From the NCBI GenBank assembly GCA_014730275.1, contig WJIL01000009.1, positions 1 through 64,000 on the forward strand: a stretch of 64,000 nt of DNA, in the 5' to 3' direction. This document shows, one piece after another, positions 9,470 through 19,909 of this stretch; the stretch's first letter is position 1; each line of letters starts with the position of its first letter. The stretch comes from Candidatus Lokiarchaeota archaeon (GTDB taxonomy: Archaea; Asgardarchaeota; Thorarchaeia; Thorarchaeales; Thorarchaeaceae). A program made the position numbers and the translations under genes. The notes beneath the pieces are model-generated. The model searched no databases. It saw only the letters and a list, made by a program, of their open reading frames with translations, and had not been told where the DNA came from.

Positions 9470-9976
9470 TCACAATGAAGATTGCAAAAGATTTGTCAGT
9501 ATTTCTATGAGTCTATCAAAATTCTCCCCGGTTTTTGCGCTCAGCAGGATATATGGAATATCTAGGGTATGAGCCTTTTCTGCGATGTCCTGCTCGGAGA
9601 GTGATTTATCAACCGCATCCAACTTATTTGCGACCAATACCCACATGTCCGGTGAAACGTGTGGGATAAGGTCAATCCATTCATCAATTTCGATAAGGGT
9701 TCGAAATCTCGTGAGATCTACAACAAGAAGAACCACCTGTGTGCCTTTTAGTAGAGATGACTGAAAGAACCGAAACTGCTCCTGTCCCCCAAGATCAAAT
9801 ATTGTAGCTTTAATCTCTCCATTGCATTCTTGGTCTAGAAGAGACCAGGTTTCGATGCCGAGACCTGCAGTCATCATGGTTTCTACGAATTTGCCAGTAA
9901 CCAGCCTTGAGGCAATCGTGGTTTTTCCCGTGCCTCCTGCGCCAACCATTGCAACCTTTACCACACGTTGATTCAA
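9470..9976 (-). CDS. Small Ras-superfamily GTPase (module A)
   Basis: GTP-binding switch protein of 168 residues, the length of a bare G domain. G1 is G-A-G-G-T-G-K-T-T at residues 12-20. G3 is D-L-G-G-Q-E at 61-66, with the catalytic-type glutamine at Q65. G4 is N-K-L-D at 117-120, and G5 is S-A-K near 145. A threonine in the T-A-G-L-G segment (about 36) could serve as G2. There is no C-terminal cysteine for prenylation and no N-terminal extension, so membrane recruitment would need a partner; the adjacent membrane protein is a candidate. It is first in its group. AT-rich TATA-like sequence lies upstream around 10065-10105. Confidence 0.93.
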   Translation of the reverse strand: MNQRVVKVAMVGAGGTGKTTIASRLVTGKFVETMMTAGLGIETWSLLDQECNGEIKATIFDLGGQEQFRFFQSSLLKGTQVVLLVVDLTRFRTLIEIDEWIDLIPHVSPDMWVLVANKLDAVDKSLSEQDIAEKAHTLDIPYILLSAKTGENFDRLIEILTNLLQSSL

Positions 9977-12294: not shown

Positions 12295-12404
12295 TACAGC
12301 GAACCATGGGCAGGCTTTGAAATCCAGGGAGTTAGAAATCTTGCAGAATCCTAAATAGATCGGCACATAGAAGTCTAAAATATCTGTAAGATTTCCTGTA
12401 TGCC

Positions 12405-12885
12405 TTCTTATGACCAAGGGCGAGGGGAGTTCATTAGGCCTAGTAAGAAATCCGAGTCTAGTAGGACTAGGGCGGTGGGCCACTCCCCCACGGGAGAAGC
12501 GCCCAGCCCCGAAGGCTGTAAGGAAGACTGGTTCTTCTAAGCAGAAGTCCTCACTCTCCAAACAAGGGACCTCATCAGGTTCCAAAGAGTCCTCGGCTGT
12601 TCACCATGTCCAGACGGACCTCCTCAGCTACGGCGACAAAGCTGAGGTGGGTGATCATGACCATGCCGTGGCAAGAACTGTGGAAGACCTCGCTGTTGCC
12701 GGGAGTGATGACCCGGGATGACAACAGGAGACGGAAGCCAGGACCGCGGGAGGAACCCCGTTCCAGTGAACGCGGACAAAGCCCCTGCTGACTCATGGGC
12801 CTACGGGTACCGTGGGGGCGGCGACGCTGGCAGGGGAAGGGTGGAACACAGAAGTTTCCTCGGTTGGGTTCACTCACCCAACTGT
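12405..12885 (+). ncRNA. Large structured non-coding RNA of unassigned family
   Basis: A GC-rich island with no credible protein frame. A long-range helix pairs 12421-12432 with 12851-12862 (11 of 12 paired, including two G-U). Inside are perfect or near-perfect hairpins: 12439-12444/12466-12471, 12483-12487/12492-12496, 12504-12508/12514-12518, 12534-12538/12543-12547, 12566-12571/12578-12583, 12622-12629/12640-12647, a two-part stem 12693-12703/12712-12727, nested stems 12744-12756/12760-12775, and 12782-12788/12830-12836 enclosing 12800-12806/12810-12816. A last hairpin (12863-12869/12876-12882) may end it. G-U pairs at three helices fit only plus-strand RNA. A TATA-like CTAAAATAT at 12375-12383 would start it near 12405. 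Size suits RNase P or SRP RNA, but I could not find the conserved CR-I/CR-V or helix-8 sequences. Confidence 0.75.
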
Positions 12886-13294
12886 AAGAAACAGGTTATC
12901 CAAGGAAAGAACCGGATTGATCCTGTGGTTGTTATCTTCTCATTTCGATATTTTGCAGGTCTCGTCAACTTGTCGAATTAACTGTTGAGTTGTGCGGGAA
13001 GGATTAGTGTGGCACTCTAGTCTCTATATTTCTTCTAAACGTTCCTGAGAGCGATAATAAACCCGTGCACGATGCTCATAATCAATATCTTGTCCTAAGA
13101 AAAAGACAAATGTTATATCCAAACTCACATTTGGAATTACCGACATTCGCTGGGCGACCTTGAATGAGAGATCTTGAGTCGCATGCCCCCGGCGGTTACG
13201 CACATGAAATGCAATGCCACCGTCATTCAAGGGGAGTGCATCACATTAGCTACTCAATCAGGTCGAAGTGATTGGGAGAGAGATGTGTGTGCAT
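12886..13294. other. Leader region of the giant surface-protein operon
   Basis: No gene is seen. GTTATATCC at 13112-13120 is the best TATA candidate for the plus-strand giant gene and would give a leader of about 150 nt. A GGGAGAG purine run at 13273-13279 can serve as ribosome site for the ATG at 13295. Confidence 0.4.
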
Positions 13295-16200
13295 ATGAAG
13301 GCAAAGTTGCTGAAACTGCGTTTGTTCACTGTTTCTGTAATTATTCTAATGCTTATTGGATTGATACCTCAGGCTGTTTGGGCAAGTCAATCAATGGAGA
13401 GAGAAGAGGATGTTATACCTCAGCCATTTGAGGGATATGACCTAGACGGTATCTATCTGTTCTATGATTCCACTGACGAGATTATGTCGGCAGTGGCTGA
13501 TGGGGTTCACGAGATAGCTTCATTTAGAATCAACAACATCATGCGGATACCTACAAAATCGCCGCATGATATCGAATTCTATCTTTCGGATGAACCATGG
13601 ATTGGAGTCTACGCCTTGCGCTCCAATTTGACCCATGTTATGTTTCCCGACTACGACATTACTTGGCAACAGTTCTACAAATTGCTGAGAGAGCACAGGT
13701 CGTCCCAGCATGTTGTAGGAATGGGAAATACGCTTTCTTTGGACCGTTGGATGACAGATGGTGATTCGAGAATCTATCACAGCGAATCTGAGCAAATCGA
13801 TGGATTGGTGCTCATTCTCTACGATATATGGGCTATCAAAGAAATCTGTACTCTCCGTGCAACGAAGAATGCAGAATACGGGGATGCCGCTAATGATCTC
13901 GAAAAGATGGCTCTGCAAATATATGCAGACAATTTCAATGCCCTATTCCAAAGAAGTGTAGATCCTGTAAATCCTGTTGGCCAGGTTGATCCCTTAGCTG
14001 CGGAAAAACGTGCCGAGAGGATGTGGGCGGAACATACTCCAGAAGTCCGAGAAGCAGCATATACTGTAACTTCAAACGGTAGTCTTGAAGCAGTGCCGGT
14101 TGAGGAGACCCCCGAAGATTTCTCGCCAATGATGCGCCTTGGTTCGCCCGCTGATGTCGTTCCAGGCGATTTCATACTTGGAGAAATTCCTCTCTTGTCC
14201 GGTCTTCGAGGTCCCATCGGCAAAATCGTGGATGTCCTTCTTGATGTACTGGCCGGCGCTGGCAAAACCGTCCTTTCTATTCCTTCGGGTGCATTGGATT
14301 CGCTAAAGGGAGTATTCGAGGAGATCTTGCCCTTCTTGGGTATTGTATCAGACTTCGATCTTGAATCTCCACTGAAATCGATAATAAATGGATTGGCGGA
14401 TCAATTCCCGTTCGGTGCTGAGCTCAAAGGATATCTTACGCCCATACTGAAGGCTCTGTTCAATCTCCGCGGGGATCTAAGCAGCATTACTGATGTCTTT
14501 GAAGAATTACTGACCGGTCTGCTGCCAGCGATTATCCCTGACGAAGTGATGACTTTCCTCGATTCTGTATTGGATATTGGCGGCGGATTGTGGAACCTGA
14601 TATCCGATGTTGTTACTGGTGGCAAGGACGTTTTTGATGCGATTCTCAGCTTTATGATGGACAATGTCCTAACTTCCTTACTCAACAAGACATTGGTGGC
14701 TTCATTAGGGGTTGCTGGTGATGTTACTGATTTGCTTTCTGATTCTATGGGGTTCATCAAGTCAATAGTCAATTACCTTTCTACTTTTGATTTCACGAGG
14801 TTCATCACCGATGTTGGAGATAATCTGATTACAAATGTGCTTGGTCTCCTAGGGGATGCTCCCGGCCAGGAAGTCGTCGGGCAGATTATGAACTTGGTCA
14901 AGCTTGGTTTCACAGCAGTGGAACAGATAGATACGGTTACTCCTGAAAGCCTCATTCAGATTCTCACGCAGACGACAGAGAGTTTCATTGACCCTTCGGA
15001 TATTACTGGCGACCCTGAAGACTTCTCCCGAGCGTTGATGAATGTCACCAAGAAATACTCCGAGCAAGGTCTCACAAGTTTGAGTGCATTCCAGGACGAG
15101 CTAGACCCAATCTTTGATGAATACGTTGCGAGCGGAGTCCCGACTGAAATCATTGCTGCCATGACTGACACGGTAAGCATGATTGCAGGTTTCTTCAACG
15201 ATGGTTTTCCAGACGCAGACCTGCCAGATATTTTCGATATTGCAGAAACACTTGTGAATCAGTTATCCTTCTCATCAGCGGAATACACCACCGCAGACGC
15301 TGCCGAAATAATGGATGCTTTTCATACGGTGCTCAAACCTGTACTGGGAGCAATTGCAAGCATAACCGGTGATCTCGGTCTCAAACGAATGATTACCGGA
15401 ACTTTGGGCAGCTTCGCAAGCGAAATAGGATCGATACCGGGTATTTTCTTGAATGTCATTCAGTTTTTGGATACAGGAAATCTACTCGACGGATTGTCCA
15501 ATCTTGAATCTGTAATGGGTGTCTTTGGCGAGATTGCAGGAGGGGCCTTCAATCTTCTTGGTCTTGTCCGTGGACAATCATTCGGTGGAATCATGAATAC
15601 TCTTCTCATGGCGGTTGGTTCGATATTTGGAACTTTTCCGCAATTCGATAATGTACCAATAGATGCGATGTTAAAGCTCATGCAGTCCTTCTTCCCCGAT
15701 GCGTTCGGTTTTGACTTGAATACTCCACCCGATGTGGCGTCGGTCATTGCCGAAGTACTGGATATGGTTACTGGCAGCATGAGCGCTGGTATCCTCAATT
15801 TGGATATGATTGGTGACATTGTCAATTTCTTCATGGACATCAAGGGCATATTCACTGACGGCATTCTATGGATAATGGAGAAGGTCTATGATTGGGTTAG
15901 CGGGATGTTAACGTCTCTGCTGCAGAATCTTGAAGACATGGTGAACGGTGTCTTTGGCGGCATGAGTGACCTTCTGGGATACGCAGGCAAATTGCCTATC
16001 GGACTTGGTGAATGGTCGCTCTTTGACCTGATTTTCGATCTTGGTATTCGCCCACAGTTTGCTATCAATGAAGAACCGCTGCTTCAGCTGATTGAAGGCG
16101 TTCTTCTCAAAGGTAGAGCGGTGTTCTCGCTCGGAACGGTAGGTGAATTCTTGAGTGCTATTTTCTCATTCTTCGAGATTACTCCGCAATTCTATGCAGA

Positions 16201-19200
16201 GCTTGGAGTATCCGGATTCGACTCCTCCAAGAACAAGTTCATGGAACATCTGCTGAGCGTGTTGGGTGTTGATCTCCAGTTCAGTGGTTATGCAAAATTC
16301 GTTATCAATCTCTTCTCGTTCAGAAACGGCATGTTCGAGTGGAGAGAATTCCTCTCCGTGAAAGAGTGGGTCATGTCGCTCAAAGTAGCTCTTGAGCGCA
16401 CATTCACATTACTTGACTTCTTGACTGGCGGCGTTGGCGGCTCAGTTCTGAATAAACTTGCAAGCTACATCGGCTTGAACTCAATCAACGTGAAAGTATG
16501 GTTCAGCCTGGAGCTTGATATCGTCAGGAAGGCTGCAACTGCAACTGGACCGATGGTAGCTACGCTTTCGCTTGTGACTATCATTGGTGCATCGATGTCC
16601 TTGGGTATCGATATTATAGTTGCGTCAGCAAAACTCTATGGCTCGCTGGAGATAGCATTCTCCTTCTTCCAAGATTTCGCTAAATCTTCACCTATGAAGA
16701 TCATGCTCCGCTTGACGCTTACACTCAAACTCAAAATCAAATTCCTGTTTGCAAAATGGAAGAAGACATGGACTTGGCAACCAGGTGGGCCTTGGGATCT
16801 ATCACCAAACAAAGGCGAAGCAGAATACGAAAACACGGGTGTGGGCTTCGATTCGGATAACGATGGGCTCAGCGATGACTACGAAAATGATGTACCAGGT
16901 CTTGATCCCAACAATCCCGATACGGATGGAGATGGGGCGAACGACAAGCTAGAGGTCATGACAATGGGGTCTGATCCCGTTGTACCTGACACTGACGAAG
17001 ACGGGCTGTTGGATGGCGAAGAATGGGAGCTGGGAACGAATCCACTTCGGGTCGACAGCGATTATGACGGTATCTCTGATTTTGATGAAGTAAGGAAATA
17101 TGGTACAGATGCTCTTACGCCTGATACCGATGGAGACGGTTTGACGGATCGCCAGGAGATTTACACCAGCTATAACATGACCGACGTTTGGGTACCGGCG
17201 GGTACTGCTATTGAGGTCTACATCGGTGGCGAACTCTTCACGGATCACACCGACCCCCTTGTAGCAGATACAGACGGCGATGGTTTGGTTGATGGTGATG
17301 AAGGACCCTCGGGCGCGTACTATGGACTTCCATCCTTGTATAATGACACAGAGGAAACAGAGGGTTCTGGTGACTGGGTCATGGATCCGAACCCACTCAT
17401 ATTCAACGGCGGATATACTCACCCGCTAGACCCGGACACGGACGACGACTCGTACCTCCAGCTGTATAATGGGGATGTGGACTCACAGGCCCTGACATTC
17501 CTCAAAGATATGAACGATGGGGCTGAAGTCGCCGGCTTCTGGATTATCGTGTATGATGACGAAGGCGAACCCGAAGATAAGCAGGTGTTTACGAATCCGT
17601 GCAACCCGGACACAGACGGCGACACGGGTATTACAGATCGGACGCCACAGCCAGGTGCGTGGATAAACAGCGACGGCTACGAGCTCGCACAGACTCCCCC
17701 GTCCGATCCGACAGATGGGGATACTGACGATGACGGTTTGCTTGACGGTCTCGAAGGCGTGCTCAGGCAGGACAGTAATCACACGGATTATCTTGACGCT
17801 GATACGGATGATGACGGATTATTCGATATGCAGGAAATCCTGCTTGGTACAGACCCTCGATGCCAGGACAGTGACTTTGACATGATTTCCGATGGCGATG
17901 AGTTCTACAAGTTCTTCACGGATCCGACGATAAGCGACTCAGACTTTGACGGCTTATCTGACGGTGAAGAGGTCTTCTTTTGGCATTCGAACCCGCTTAT
18001 TGACGATAGTGATGGGGATGGCATTCTTGACGGAAGAGAGGTTCTGAAGTACGGTTCGGATCCCATGGATGAAGATAGCGACAACGATGGGCTCACCGAT
18101 TTTGAAGAGATTATGATCTACTACACGGATCCATTCTCCTATGATAGTGATTCAGACGGACTCAGCGATGGCGAGGAGATTCTATATTATGGTACGAATC
18201 CGCTTGCTTGGGACACTGACAACGATACTATAACACATCCCAACGAGCTGGGTGAATTCTCCTGGCCAATGAGCGACTACGATGAAGTTATGATTCATGG
18301 TACCAATGCCACAGAGGCAGATTCTGATTTGGATGGACTTTCTGATGCGTATGAGCTGTATCTGGGTTCTGGTCTGATTCCGTGGATGGACCCAATCCCC
18401 TTGGATCCGATGGACTACGATACTGATGATGATTGGCTAAGTGATGGTTCAGAGCTGGTCATTGAAAACATCAGCACCTTGCTGTATCCCTTCCAAGCAC
18501 CCGTTCTTGTGTTCAGGTACAACACTTCACCAGTCCTGCAGGATACGGACAACGACACGCTCATAGACTACCAAGAAGTGATGGTTTTCAACTCTAATCC
18601 TGCTTCGAATGATTCGGATAACGATACGCTGCCGGACTGGAACGAGATTTGGGTATACAACACGTCCGCCATATCGAACGACACTGATGGTGACGGGTTG
18701 CTAGACAATGAAGAGACGCTATACGAAGTGTATCCGTACGGAGATTGGCCACCAGTCAATTGGTCAATCGGCATGACGACCGAGAATGAACCGGAAGGTG
18801 GTGGTTTCTCAGGTGGCGCGGCTCAGGCTTACGAGCAGGCTCAAACTGACCCTGTATATGAGAGCTCAGCGACTGATCCCGACAGCGATGACGATTGGCT
18901 TCCTGACGGCGCGGAGGTCTTCTTCTACGAGACTGAACCGATGGATGATGATTCGGACGGAGATGGCCGCGCCGATACCTACGAGTTTGATACGGATTAT
19001 GACGCTTTGCCAGACGGCCTTGAGTTCAAGTTGGGACTTCAGACCATACCTGGTGGGGGTATCATGAGCCCAGACAGCGACCTTGACGGTTTGCTTGATG
19101 GAGACGAGTACTACGTCTATGGAACGGATCCTGGAAACAGAGATACAGATGGCGATGGGTACTCAGACGGCCTCGAAATAGCCTTGGGATTGGATCCACT

Positions 19201-19909
19201 GACAAACACTACCAAAGATGAATTCGAGATGGCCTTGGCGTATCAACGTGGCAAGAGTACGCTCAAAATCATGACACCAGCTAACGGAACAGAGGTCTAT
19301 CAGAATACAGCTGTTAGTGTCGCCAACTTTACTCCCTTCCAAGAGGTCTGGTTCAAGTTCCAGAATGGTTCGGACTGGAGCGAAGACTACCAAATGGAGT
19401 ACAACCCGGGAGCCCAACAATGGCAGAGCAATGAAATCAAATGGAGCCCGGGAACTTACACTCTGAGAGTTTACGCCCTCAACAATACTGGTGTTATTCA
19501 CGCAGCTACGGTGACCTTCGTGGTTATTCCAGGAACTGGATTCATGGCTACCGTACTCATGGCGGCCGCTATTGTTGGTTTGATTGCTGTTGTGGCAATC
19601 GTTGGTTATGTCGGTCACAGGAAGGGTTGGTGGTCGAGAGTGCTTGGCGGAATTAGACGTGGTGGAGGAGTACAGGACTATGGCCTTGAGCTCTCCGATT
19701 TGCAGGGTGTTGGTGCTACACTTGAGAAACGACTGAAAGAAGGTGGATTTGATTCGGTTTCAAAAATTGCGGAGGCCGATTCACAGGAACTGGGACAGAT
19801 TAAAGGATTGAGTACGGATCGTGCTGAGAACATGATAGAACAAGCGCAGAAACTGCTACAGGAAGCGAAGGACAATGCTGAGGCTGGTATACAGGAGGGA
19901 GGTGCATAA
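13295..19909 (+). CDS. Giant membrane-anchored surface protein with thrombospondin type-3 calcium repeats
   Basis: Roughly 2,200-residue protein outside the cell, anchored near its C-terminus. A signal peptide covers residues 1-26. A mixed domain (to about 270) is followed by about 880 residues (280-1160) of glycine-punctuated amphipathic and hydrophobic helices. From about 1184 to 1965 come some twenty thrombospondin type-3-like repeats of the D-x-D-x-D-G-x-x-D type, expected to bind calcium and form a stiff stalk. An Ig-like domain lies near 1990-2080, a membrane helix at about 2083-2108, a basic stop-transfer segment, and then a cytosolic helix-hairpin-helix-like domain (about 2128-2200). 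The frame extends to a GTG at 13268, but the ATG at 13295 gives a proper signal peptide. It is followed after 1 nt by the second giant gene. Confidence 0.9.
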   Translation: MKAKLLKLRLFTVSVIILMLIGLIPQAVWASQSMEREEDVIPQPFEGYDLDGIYLFYDSTDEIMSAVADGVHEIASFRINNIMRIPTKSPHDIEFYLSDEPWIGVYALRSNLTHVMFPDYDITWQQFYKLLREHRSSQHVVGMGNTLSLDRWMTDGDSRIYHSESEQIDGLVLILYDIWAIKEICTLRATKNAEYGDAANDLEKMALQIYADNFNALFQRSVDPVNPVGQVDPLAAEKRAERMWAEHTPEVREAAYTVTSNGSLEAVPVEETPEDFSPMMRLGSPADVVPGDFILGEIPLLSGLRGPIGKIVDVLLDVLAGAGKTVLSIPSGALDSLKGVFEEILPFLGIVSDFDLESPLKSIINGLADQFPFGAELKGYLTPILKALFNLRGDLSSITDVFEELLTGLLPAIIPDEVMTFLDSVLDIGGGLWNLISDVVTGGKDVFDAILSFMMDNVLTSLLNKTLVASLGVAGDVTDLLSDSMGFIKSIVNYLSTFDFTRFITDVGDNLITNVLGLLGDAPGQEVVGQIMNLVKLGFTAVEQIDTVTPESLIQILTQTTESFIDPSDITGDPEDFSRALMNVTKKYSEQGLTSLSAFQDELDPIFDEYVASGVPTEIIAAMTDTVSMIAGFFNDGFPDADLPDIFDIAETLVNQLSFSSAEYTTADAAEIMDAFHTVLKPVLGAIASITGDLGLKRMITGTLGSFASEIGSIPGIFLNVIQFLDTGNLLDGLSNLESVMGVFGEIAGGAFNLLGLVRGQSFGGIMNTLLMAVGSIFGTFPQFDNVPIDAMLKLMQSFFPDAFGFDLNTPPDVASVIAEVLDMVTGSMSAGILNLDMIGDIVNFFMDIKGIFTDGILWIMEKVYDWVSGMLTSLLQNLEDMVNGVFGGMSDLLGYAGKLPIGLGEWSLFDLIFDLGIRPQFAINEEPLLQLIEGVLLKGRAVFSLGTVGEFLSAIFSFFEITPQFYAELGVSGFDSSKNKFMEHLLSVLGVDLQFSGYAKFVINLFSFRNGMFEWREFLSVKEWVMSLKVALERTFTLLDFLTGGVGGSVLNKLASYIGLNSINVKVWFSLELDIVRKAATATGPMVATLSLVTIIGASMSLGIDIIVASAKLYGSLEIAFSFFQDFAKSSPMKIMLRLTLTLKLKIKFLFAKWKKTWTWQPGGPWDLSPNKGEAEYENTGVGFDSDNDGLSDDYENDVPGLDPNNPDTDGDGANDKLEVMTMGSDPVVPDTDEDGLLDGEEWELGTNPLRVDSDYDGISDFDEVRKYGTDALTPDTDGDGLTDRQEIYTSYNMTDVWVPAGTAIEVYIGGELFTDHTDPLVADTDGDGLVDGDEGPSGAYYGLPSLYNDTEETEGSGDWVMDPNPLIFNGGYTHPLDPDTDDDSYLQLYNGDVDSQALTFLKDMNDGAEVAGFWIIVYDDEGEPEDKQVFTNPCNPDTDGDTGITDRTPQPGAWINSDGYELAQTPPSDPTDGDTDDDGLLDGLEGVLRQDSNHTDYLDADTDDDGLFDMQEILLGTDPRCQDSDFDMISDGDEFYKFFTDPTISDSDFDGLSDGEEVFFWHSNPLIDDSDGDGILDGREVLKYGSDPMDEDSDNDGLTDFEEIMIYYTDPFSYDSDSDGLSDGEEILYYGTNPLAWDTDNDTITHPNELGEFSWPMSDYDEVMIHGTNATEADSDLDGLSDAYELYLGSGLIPWMDPIPLDPMDYDTDDDWLSDGSELVIENISTLLYPFQAPVLVFRYNTSPVLQDTDNDTLIDYQEVMVFNSNPASNDSDNDTLPDWNEIWVYNTSAISNDTDGDGLLDNEETLYEVYPYGDWPPVNWSIGMTTENEPEGGGFSGGAAQAYEQAQTDPVYESSATDPDSDDDWLPDGAEVFFYETEPMDDDSDGDGRADTYEFDTDYDALPDGLEFKLGLQTIPGGGIMSPDSDLDGLLDGDEYYVYGTDPGNRDTDGDGYSDGLEIALGLDPLTNTTKDEFEMALAYQRGKSTLKIMTPANGTEVYQNTAVSVANFTPFQEVWFKFQNGSDWSEDYQMEYNPGAQQWQSNEIKWSPGTYTLRVYALNNTGVIHAATVTFVVIPGTGFMATVLMAAAIVGLIAVVAIVGYVGHRKGWWSRVLGGIRRGGGVQDYGLELSDLQGVGATLEKRLKEGGFDSVSKIAEADSQELGQIKGLSTDRAENMIEQAQKLLQEAKDNAEAGIQEGGA

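What the first reader, a model, noticed from the sequence alone, without database searches (positions are those of the whole stretch)
12405..12885. Unassigned large structured RNA with a long closing helix
A GC-rich island with at least ten hairpins inside one long-range helix (12421-12432 with 12851-12862), its own TATA-like box, and G-U pairs that fit only the plus strand. It is the size of a housekeeping RNA, yet the hallmark sequences of RNase P RNA and SRP RNA were not found by eye. It is either a very divergent copy of one of these or a new large archaeal RNA. Its place just before a giant surface-protein operon may be incidental.
Basis: seen in the sequence. Interest (0 to 1): 0.82.

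Follow-up and report, generated by a model that had tools for sequence, protein, structure and literature searches.

The report
Mobile guide RNA without its nuclease
The 'unassigned large RNA' is a 570-base jumping-gene fragment in a Thorarchaeota (Asgard) genome that keeps the guide RNA of an RNA-guided DNA-cutting enzyme (TnpB) but not the enzyme; its full-length relatives form an apparently undescribed ~8-kb transposon that also seems to carry a second, short guide aimed at its own promoter.

Summary
The structured plus-strand RNA is real, but it is not a housekeeping RNA. It is dispersed: 19 matches in its own genome, up to 21 or more per genome in Thorarchaeota relatives, none in 72 sampled genomes outside the family. 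It ends sharply at 12898. In other copies the same sequence is the 3' end and right end of a TnpB transposon: a TnpB omega-RNA of about 440 nt. Across 38 copies its structure covaries very strongly (94% of pair cells kept; 354 double-changed cells against 109 in shuffles). The TnpB 'tail' it overlaps shows almost no codon signature. The window copy (12329-12898) is a MITE-like derivative: left end plus omega-RNA, near-identical 6-bp target duplications, guide from about 12900. The genome encodes intact TnpB with a rearranged, Fanzor-type active site. Full elements (~7.7 kb) have a TCNNGA duplication and a divergent 1,400-1,800-aa unknown protein; no Y1 or serine transposase was found in this genome. 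Unexpected: in 45 of 55 tnpB loci the tnpB leader ends like the omega-RNA and carries 11 or more nt identical to its own TATA region, behind a TTNAT motif, suggesting RNA-guided self-repression.

The parts
12323..12328 (.). left target-site duplication TCCAGG
   Evidence: pairs with TCCAAG at the right end (5/6); 7 of 12 related copies have perfect 6-bp duplications of the form TCNNGA, permutation p 0.0002
12329..12898 (+). whole 570-bp MITE-like element (left end + omega-RNA/right end)
   Evidence: (empty site of a sister copy)
12329..12410 (+). left end; AAATCTTGCAG at 12336-12346 and inverted TCTGTAAGATTT at 12383-12394; 84-88% identical to the far left end of full-length elements in contigs C134 and C147
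12421..12462 (+). diverged junction segment, apparently a remnant of tnpB just upstream of the conserved omega-RNA; may or may not be in the RNA
   Evidence: homology to tnpB read by eye
12461..12898 (+). omega-RNA (reRNA) scaffold, about 440 nt; 5' end not mapped
   Evidence: covariation, (77 of 81 pairs kept here); last 200 nt scored 197 bits, E 3.6e-44, by model R1, to which this copy contributed
12461..12757 (+). region that is the C-terminal 'tail' of TnpB in intact copies (one in-frame stop here); evolves as RNA, not protein
   Evidence: 1 TGA; codon test
12601..12654 (+). covarying stem 12601-12605/12650-12654 enclosing two further hairpins
   Evidence: helices 3-6
12658..12662 (+). UGACC, pairs with terminal GGUUA (12894-12898)
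   Evidence: helix 7, 95.3% of cells paired
12782..12836 (+). stem 12782-12789/12829-12836 with strongly covarying inner hairpin
   Evidence: helices 13-17
12882..12898 (+). right terminus CTGTAAGAAACAGGTTA; sharp end shared by copies
12899..12904 (.). right target-site duplication TCCAAG
12900..12919 (+). predicted guide of the omega-RNA (host sequence beyond the right end; exact first base and length inferred)
   Evidence: inference from established TnpB biology; sequence here differs from copy to copy

Best explanation
12329-12898 is a non-autonomous, MITE-like copy of a ~7.7-kb Thorarchaeota transposon. It has lost the genes but kept the left end and the omega-RNA/right end. The RNA (about 12461-12898, plus strand) is the scaffold of a TnpB guide RNA; its guide is the host sequence just beyond the right end (from about 12900). 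Proposed working: TnpB made by intact copies elsewhere in the genome (C84 at least) binds this RNA in trans and cuts sister chromosomes or incoming DNA that carry the empty site, so that repair restores the element and it is retained. Shown: multicopy mobility, target duplications, homology to the right end of tnpB elements, RNA-level constraint on the structure, intact TnpB in the genome. Inferred: transcription, loading in trans, cleavage and retention. Confidence is about 0.95 for identity (omega-RNA/right end in a MITE) and about 0.6 for the trans-retention mechanism; the figure given is for the whole statement.
For: Multicopy with sharp ends; continuous with tnpB in other copies; TnpB domains and invariant D240-E401-D435; strong covariation; no codon signature in the overlapped tail; 77 of 81 pairs kept in the window copy and 92.7% in tnpB-less copies; left end shared with full elements, target duplications, empty site for a sister copy; intact TnpB ORF in C84 of the same genome.
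Against: No expression or binding data. Insertion sites show no clear TAM at the left flank (inspection of flanks). The window's own duplication is 5/6, so the copy is not brand new, and its own empty site could not be seen. The cognate TnpB need not be the C84 protein, whose own omega-RNA is only 74% identical to this one.
Confidence: 0.65

Rival explanations
1. The element is an inert, recently deleted transposon relic; the RNA is kept only because the deletion is young and MITE copies spread by their termini, not because the RNA works.
For: Deletion derivatives of transposons are common; the window lacks any gene; ORF remnants are still open in several copies; some tnpB-less copies are losing structure (L117 keeps 78% of pairs).
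Against: tnpB-less copies keep 92.7% of pairs overall and show double changes at 36 of 81 pairs among only 12 copies; several MITE lineages keep the omega-RNA rather than just the termini.
Confidence: 0.25
2. The solo omega-RNA has another role: a decoy that titrates TnpB, or a guide exapted to act on another locus.
For: tnpB-less guides are free of their nuclease gene and so could be repurposed; TnpB-derived regulators with repurposed guides exist (TldR, PMC13418256).
Against: The guide here is simply the flanking host DNA, as in every other copy, and the flanks are target duplications, as expected for plain transposition.
Confidence: 0.08
3. The region encodes a protein domain (C-terminal tail of TnpB).
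For: The frame is open for about 100 codons past the zinc finger in intact tnpB copies.
Against: Flat codon-position profile 0.259/0.244/0.293 and 40% synonymous single changes, against 0.277/0.181/0.547 and 76% in the body of TnpB; strong RNA covariation; window frame carries a stop.
Confidence: 0.01
4. A divergent RNase P/SRP RNA or a new single-copy archaeal housekeeping RNA.
For: Size and GC island only.
Against: Multicopy and absent in many relatives; no Rfam hit even permissively; bounded by transposon ends.
Confidence: 0.01

Closest known systems
TnpB omega-RNA / reRNA of IS200/IS605 and IS607 elements (PMC8612924, PMC10278001)
   Same: Overlaps the 3' end of tnpB, ends at the transposon right end, structured scaffold with a pairing next to the guide, guide taken from the flank; length about 440 nt lies inside the published range of 79-466 nt (PMC10278001).
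   Different: Sequence family not in Rfam; transposon has a ~6-bp target duplication and a giant divergent gene instead of a Y1 or serine transposase; the window copy has no tnpB.
PATEs of Haloquadratum, especially HqIRS71 (PMC3119063)
   Same: Short tnpB-less derivative; HqIRS71 keeps a terminal segment including the TnpB C-terminal region with broken ORFs, as here.
   Different: PATEs belong to IS605-type elements with subterminal palindromes and no target duplication; they were described before omega-RNAs were known.
Ealt TnpBs and Fanzors (PMC10711439)
   Same: Glutamate six residues before the zinc finger, matching the published ExxxxxxCxxCx(12,18)CxxCx(4,8)D pattern.
   Different: RuvC-I is DLG, not the Fanzor DPG; archaeal host; not in an IS607 element.
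TldR, TnpB-derived RNA-guided repressors (PMC13418256)
   Same: RNA-guided control of transcription, as proposed for the leader RNA of the full elements.
   Different: Here it would be a nuclease-competent TnpB targeting its own TATA region; no such case was found in the papers searched.

Membership tests
TnpB omega-RNA | Overlaps or abuts the 3' end of tnpB and ends at the transposon right end | tested here: met
   Homologous copies
TnpB omega-RNA | Conserved secondary structure with a pairing next to the guide | tested here: met
   (helix 7 ends one base before the copies diverge)
TnpB omega-RNA | Guide derived from the right flank, different in every copy | tested here: met
TnpB omega-RNA | TAM at the left flank of insertions | tested here: inconclusive
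   Flanks inspected; no strong motif beyond the duplication
TnpB omega-RNA | Bound or processed by TnpB | not testable with these tools
   Needs RNA or biochemical data
IS200/IS605 element | Y1 (HUH) TnpA; no target duplication | tested here: not met
   No PF01797 in the genome (control genomes rang); target duplication present
IS607 element | Serine recombinase TnpA | tested here: not met
   No PF00239 in the genome (control genomes rang)
MITE (non-autonomous derivative) | Short, gene-less, shares both termini and target duplication type with a full element | tested here: met
   similarity between the two ends is short and imperfect (AAATCTTACAG against GTTTCTTACAG)
RNase P RNA / SRP RNA | Rfam covariance match; single copy | tested here: not met
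Ealt-type TnpB (for the partner protein) | Relocated RuvC-II Glu six residues before the zinc finger, D and D retained | tested here: met
   Invariant in 12 aligned proteins
TldR (nuclease-dead TnpB regulator) | Catalytic residues lost | tested here: not met
   Triad invariant if the relocated Glu is counted
Group II intron | Reverse transcriptase ORF in longer copies; domain V | tested here: not met
   No plausible RT ORF near copies; no Rfam match

The most novel reading that the evidence does not exclude
The Thorarchaeota elements are an undescribed transposon class (TCNNGA target duplication, giant protein with a PD-(D/E)XK-like motif and a RecA-like fold) that carries an Ealt TnpB. The tnpB 5' leader is itself a ~70-nt mini omega-RNA whose ~12-nt guide matches the TATA region of its own promoter behind a TTNAT motif, so that TnpB represses itself by RNA-guided binding. 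Solo omega-RNA MITEs such as the window copy exploit this TnpB in trans.
Probability: 0.5. Interest if true: 0.87.

Novelty: new variant of a known kind. Interest (0 to 1): 0.72.

Why it matters
It explains a large unassigned Asgard RNA and places an omega-RNA in a transposon that has neither of the two usual TnpB-associated transposases. It supplies a natural set of solo guide RNAs that must work in trans if they work at all. The related self-guide, matched copy by copy in 45 of 55 loci including TnpBs only 45-49% identical, would be an RNA-guided autoregulatory circuit at the TnpB level, and it makes TAM and guide length predictable and testable.

Tried and rejected
Housekeeping RNA: rejected by copy number and lack of Rfam match. 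Group II intron 5' half (my first suspicion): no reverse transcriptase near the copies. Single-sequence folding energy as evidence: uninformative. Orthologous empty site for the window copy itself: the G001 contig C50 ends at the equivalent of 13230, so no test; a clean empty site was found for a sister copy instead; a second candidate (G001:C12 against G000:C4) was too divergent to read. Pfam and PADLOC for the giant protein: nothing significant. I first took the tnpB leader for the transposon left end; the divergent giant gene showed it is an internal intergenic region. Aloposons (PMC8813620) considered for the giant protein: different size, genes and integration sites. A first reading of a 220-236-aa ORF as a tyrosine recombinase (by eye) was dropped: no Pfam match.

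Full report
Observation. The GC island at about 12400-12900 is real and has no Rfam match at gathering or permissive thresholds. Folding energy of the single sequence is ordinary (z -0.93 plus, -0.24 minus), so the case for an RNA cannot rest on hairpins in one sequence.

It is a mobile repeat. The DNA matches 19 places in its own genome (eight of them near full length, 74-100% identity, the window itself included) and 24 of 59 sampled genomes, all in one family. A covariance model of the last 200 nt (R1) finds 36 of 47 genomes of that family, up to the 21 candidates scored per genome, and none of 72 outside it. The organisms are Thorarchaeota (titles; one related record is labelled Lokiarchaeota).

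What it belongs to. Aligned copies share a sharp 3' end at ...CAGGTTA(T), after which sequences diverge. In several copies the upstream part continues into the C-terminal zinc-finger and RuvC-III region of a TnpB; intact ORFs of about 555 aa end roughly 135 nt before the common 3' end. The protein matches NCBIfam guided_TnpB (81-86 bits, below its cut-off of 100) and Pfam PF07282 above cut-off. The canonical RuvC-II glutamate is replaced by glycine, but an invariant glutamate lies six residues before the zinc finger, the Ealt arrangement described in PMC10711439. So the window sequence is the omega-RNA and right end of a TnpB transposon.

RNA, not protein. In intact copies most of this sequence is also read as a ~100-aa tail of TnpB, yet the tail has a flat codon-position profile (0.259/0.244/0.293) and 40% synonymous single changes, while the TnpB body shows 0.277/0.181/0.547 and 76% (33 copies). 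On 38 copies the consensus structure of 81 pairs keeps 94.1% of cells paired (shuffles 85.5%, slid partners 45% or less), with 51 pairs and 354 cells changed on both sides (shuffles 31.3 and 108.7); no shuffle of 500 reached these values. Caveats: the shuffle control does not keep the relatedness of the sequences; the slid control does, but favours the given structure because it was derived from this alignment. A conserved long-range helix is UGACC with the terminal GGUUA.

The window copy. It contains a left end (12329-12410) that is 84-88% identical to the far left end of full-length elements in the same genome, then a diverged scrap of tnpB, then the omega-RNA. It is bounded by TCCAGG/TCCAAG. 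Seven of twelve sister or full-length copies have perfect 6-bp duplications of the form TCNNGA (permutation p 0.0002; the 6-mers were chosen by eye and then located by script in most copies, so the p value is a little generous). One sister copy has an empty orthologous site. The window copy keeps 77 of 81 consensus pairs; tnpB-less copies as a group keep 92.7% against 94.7% in tnpB-bearing ones. The genome encodes at least one intact TnpB of this family (C84), a second, more distant long ORF (C130, 48% identity) and others cut by a contig end or a stop.

Full-length element. tnpB is divergently paired with a gene of 1,415-1,817 codons. The copy in contig C147 runs from TATCTGGA|ACAATAGAAATCTTACAG to GGGT|TATCTGGA, about 7.65 kb. 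No Y1 or serine transposase was found in this genome. The giant protein has no Pfam or PADLOC assignment; its alignment shows a conserved D...(D/E)xK motif (my reading), and the AlphaFold model of its first 900 residues (pLDDT 85, pTM 0.84) matches RecA/Rad51-type domains (best Foldseek E 1.4e-4, TM-score about 0.3-0.45 by target length). It is the natural transposase candidate, but that is inference.

The leader of tnpB. Upstream of tnpB in the full elements lies CTTAAT-[AAcTTTATATA..]-~17 nt-TACGAG...CUGACC..GGUCAG-[AAcTTTATATA..]-ATG. The two bracketed stretches match each other copy by copy: mean best match 13.3 nt within a locus against 8.3 between loci, 11 nt or more in 38 of 45 main and 7 of 10 divergent loci, mostly at a spacing of 92-99 nt. 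A separate test on 31 copies, some of them the same loci, gave 0 of 2000 permutations. The second stretch follows a terminus like that of the omega-RNA; the first follows a TTNAT-type motif and overlaps the presumed TATA box. ISDra2 TnpB uses only the first 12 nt of its guide (stated in PMC10278001). The simplest reading is a mini omega-RNA that targets its own promoter. Caveats: the leader stem has little covariation, no RNA data exist, and a guide of this length might cut rather than repress. This feature is not present in the window copy.

Mechanism. Shown: mobility, element boundaries, homology to a TnpB right end, RNA-level constraint, intact TnpB in the genome. Inferred: the window RNA is expressed, loaded in trans and promotes retention of the MITE. 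A relic without function remains possible for this individual copy.

Known versus new. By position and structure the RNA is a TnpB omega-RNA; its length is inside the published range (79-466 nt, PMC10278001). tnpB-less relatives that keep a TnpB C-terminal segment have a precedent in the haloarchaeal PATE HqIRS71 (PMC3119063). New, as far as the searched open-access papers go, are the transposon architecture, the Thorarchaeota RNA family and the self-matching leader; the main census of TnpB diversity (PNAS 2023) could not be read here, so its coverage of this clade is unknown to me.

Noticed in passing
Upstream of tnpB in L135-L208 and L037-L049 (e.g. L139, the 120 bases before 3001): Copy-specific direct repeat: 11 or more nt after an omega-RNA-like terminus (..CAGGTCAG) identical to the TATA region 92-99 nt upstream, which follows TTAAT/TTCAT/TTGAT; 45 of 55 loci. 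Possible self-targeting mini omega-RNA.
   Followed up: yes
L229, L230, L231, L233, L235, L237, L239, L240: Giant gene (1,415-1,817 codons) divergent from tnpB in full elements; conserved D..(D/E)xK motif by eye, RecA-like fold in the model.
   Followed up: partly
L229 851-1559 (tnpB-plus orientation) and L231 4361-5021 (tnpB-plus orientation): Related-looking 220-236-aa ORFs convergent with the giant gene near the left end in two subfamilies; no Pfam match for the one tested.
   Followed up: no
TnpB family, alignment A1: RuvC-II Glu is moved to six residues before the zinc finger (Fanzor-like Ealt) in all 12 aligned proteins.
   Followed up: yes
Right ends of L004, L005, L006, L007, L051, L052, L075: These tnpB-less copies lack the TTGGGTTCACTCAC insert next to the right terminus and have a short CCTA or GCTA loop instead; two right-end types coexist in the same genomes.
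   Followed up: no
Window 9470-9976 (minus): Small Ras/Arf-like GTPase ORF by eye (GAGGTGKTT, NKLD), a typical Asgard feature.
   Followed up: no
Window 13268-19909 (plus): 2,213-aa surface protein with many DxDxDG repeats; its ortholog in G001 (87% identity) sits at a contig end that breaks just upstream.
   Followed up: partly
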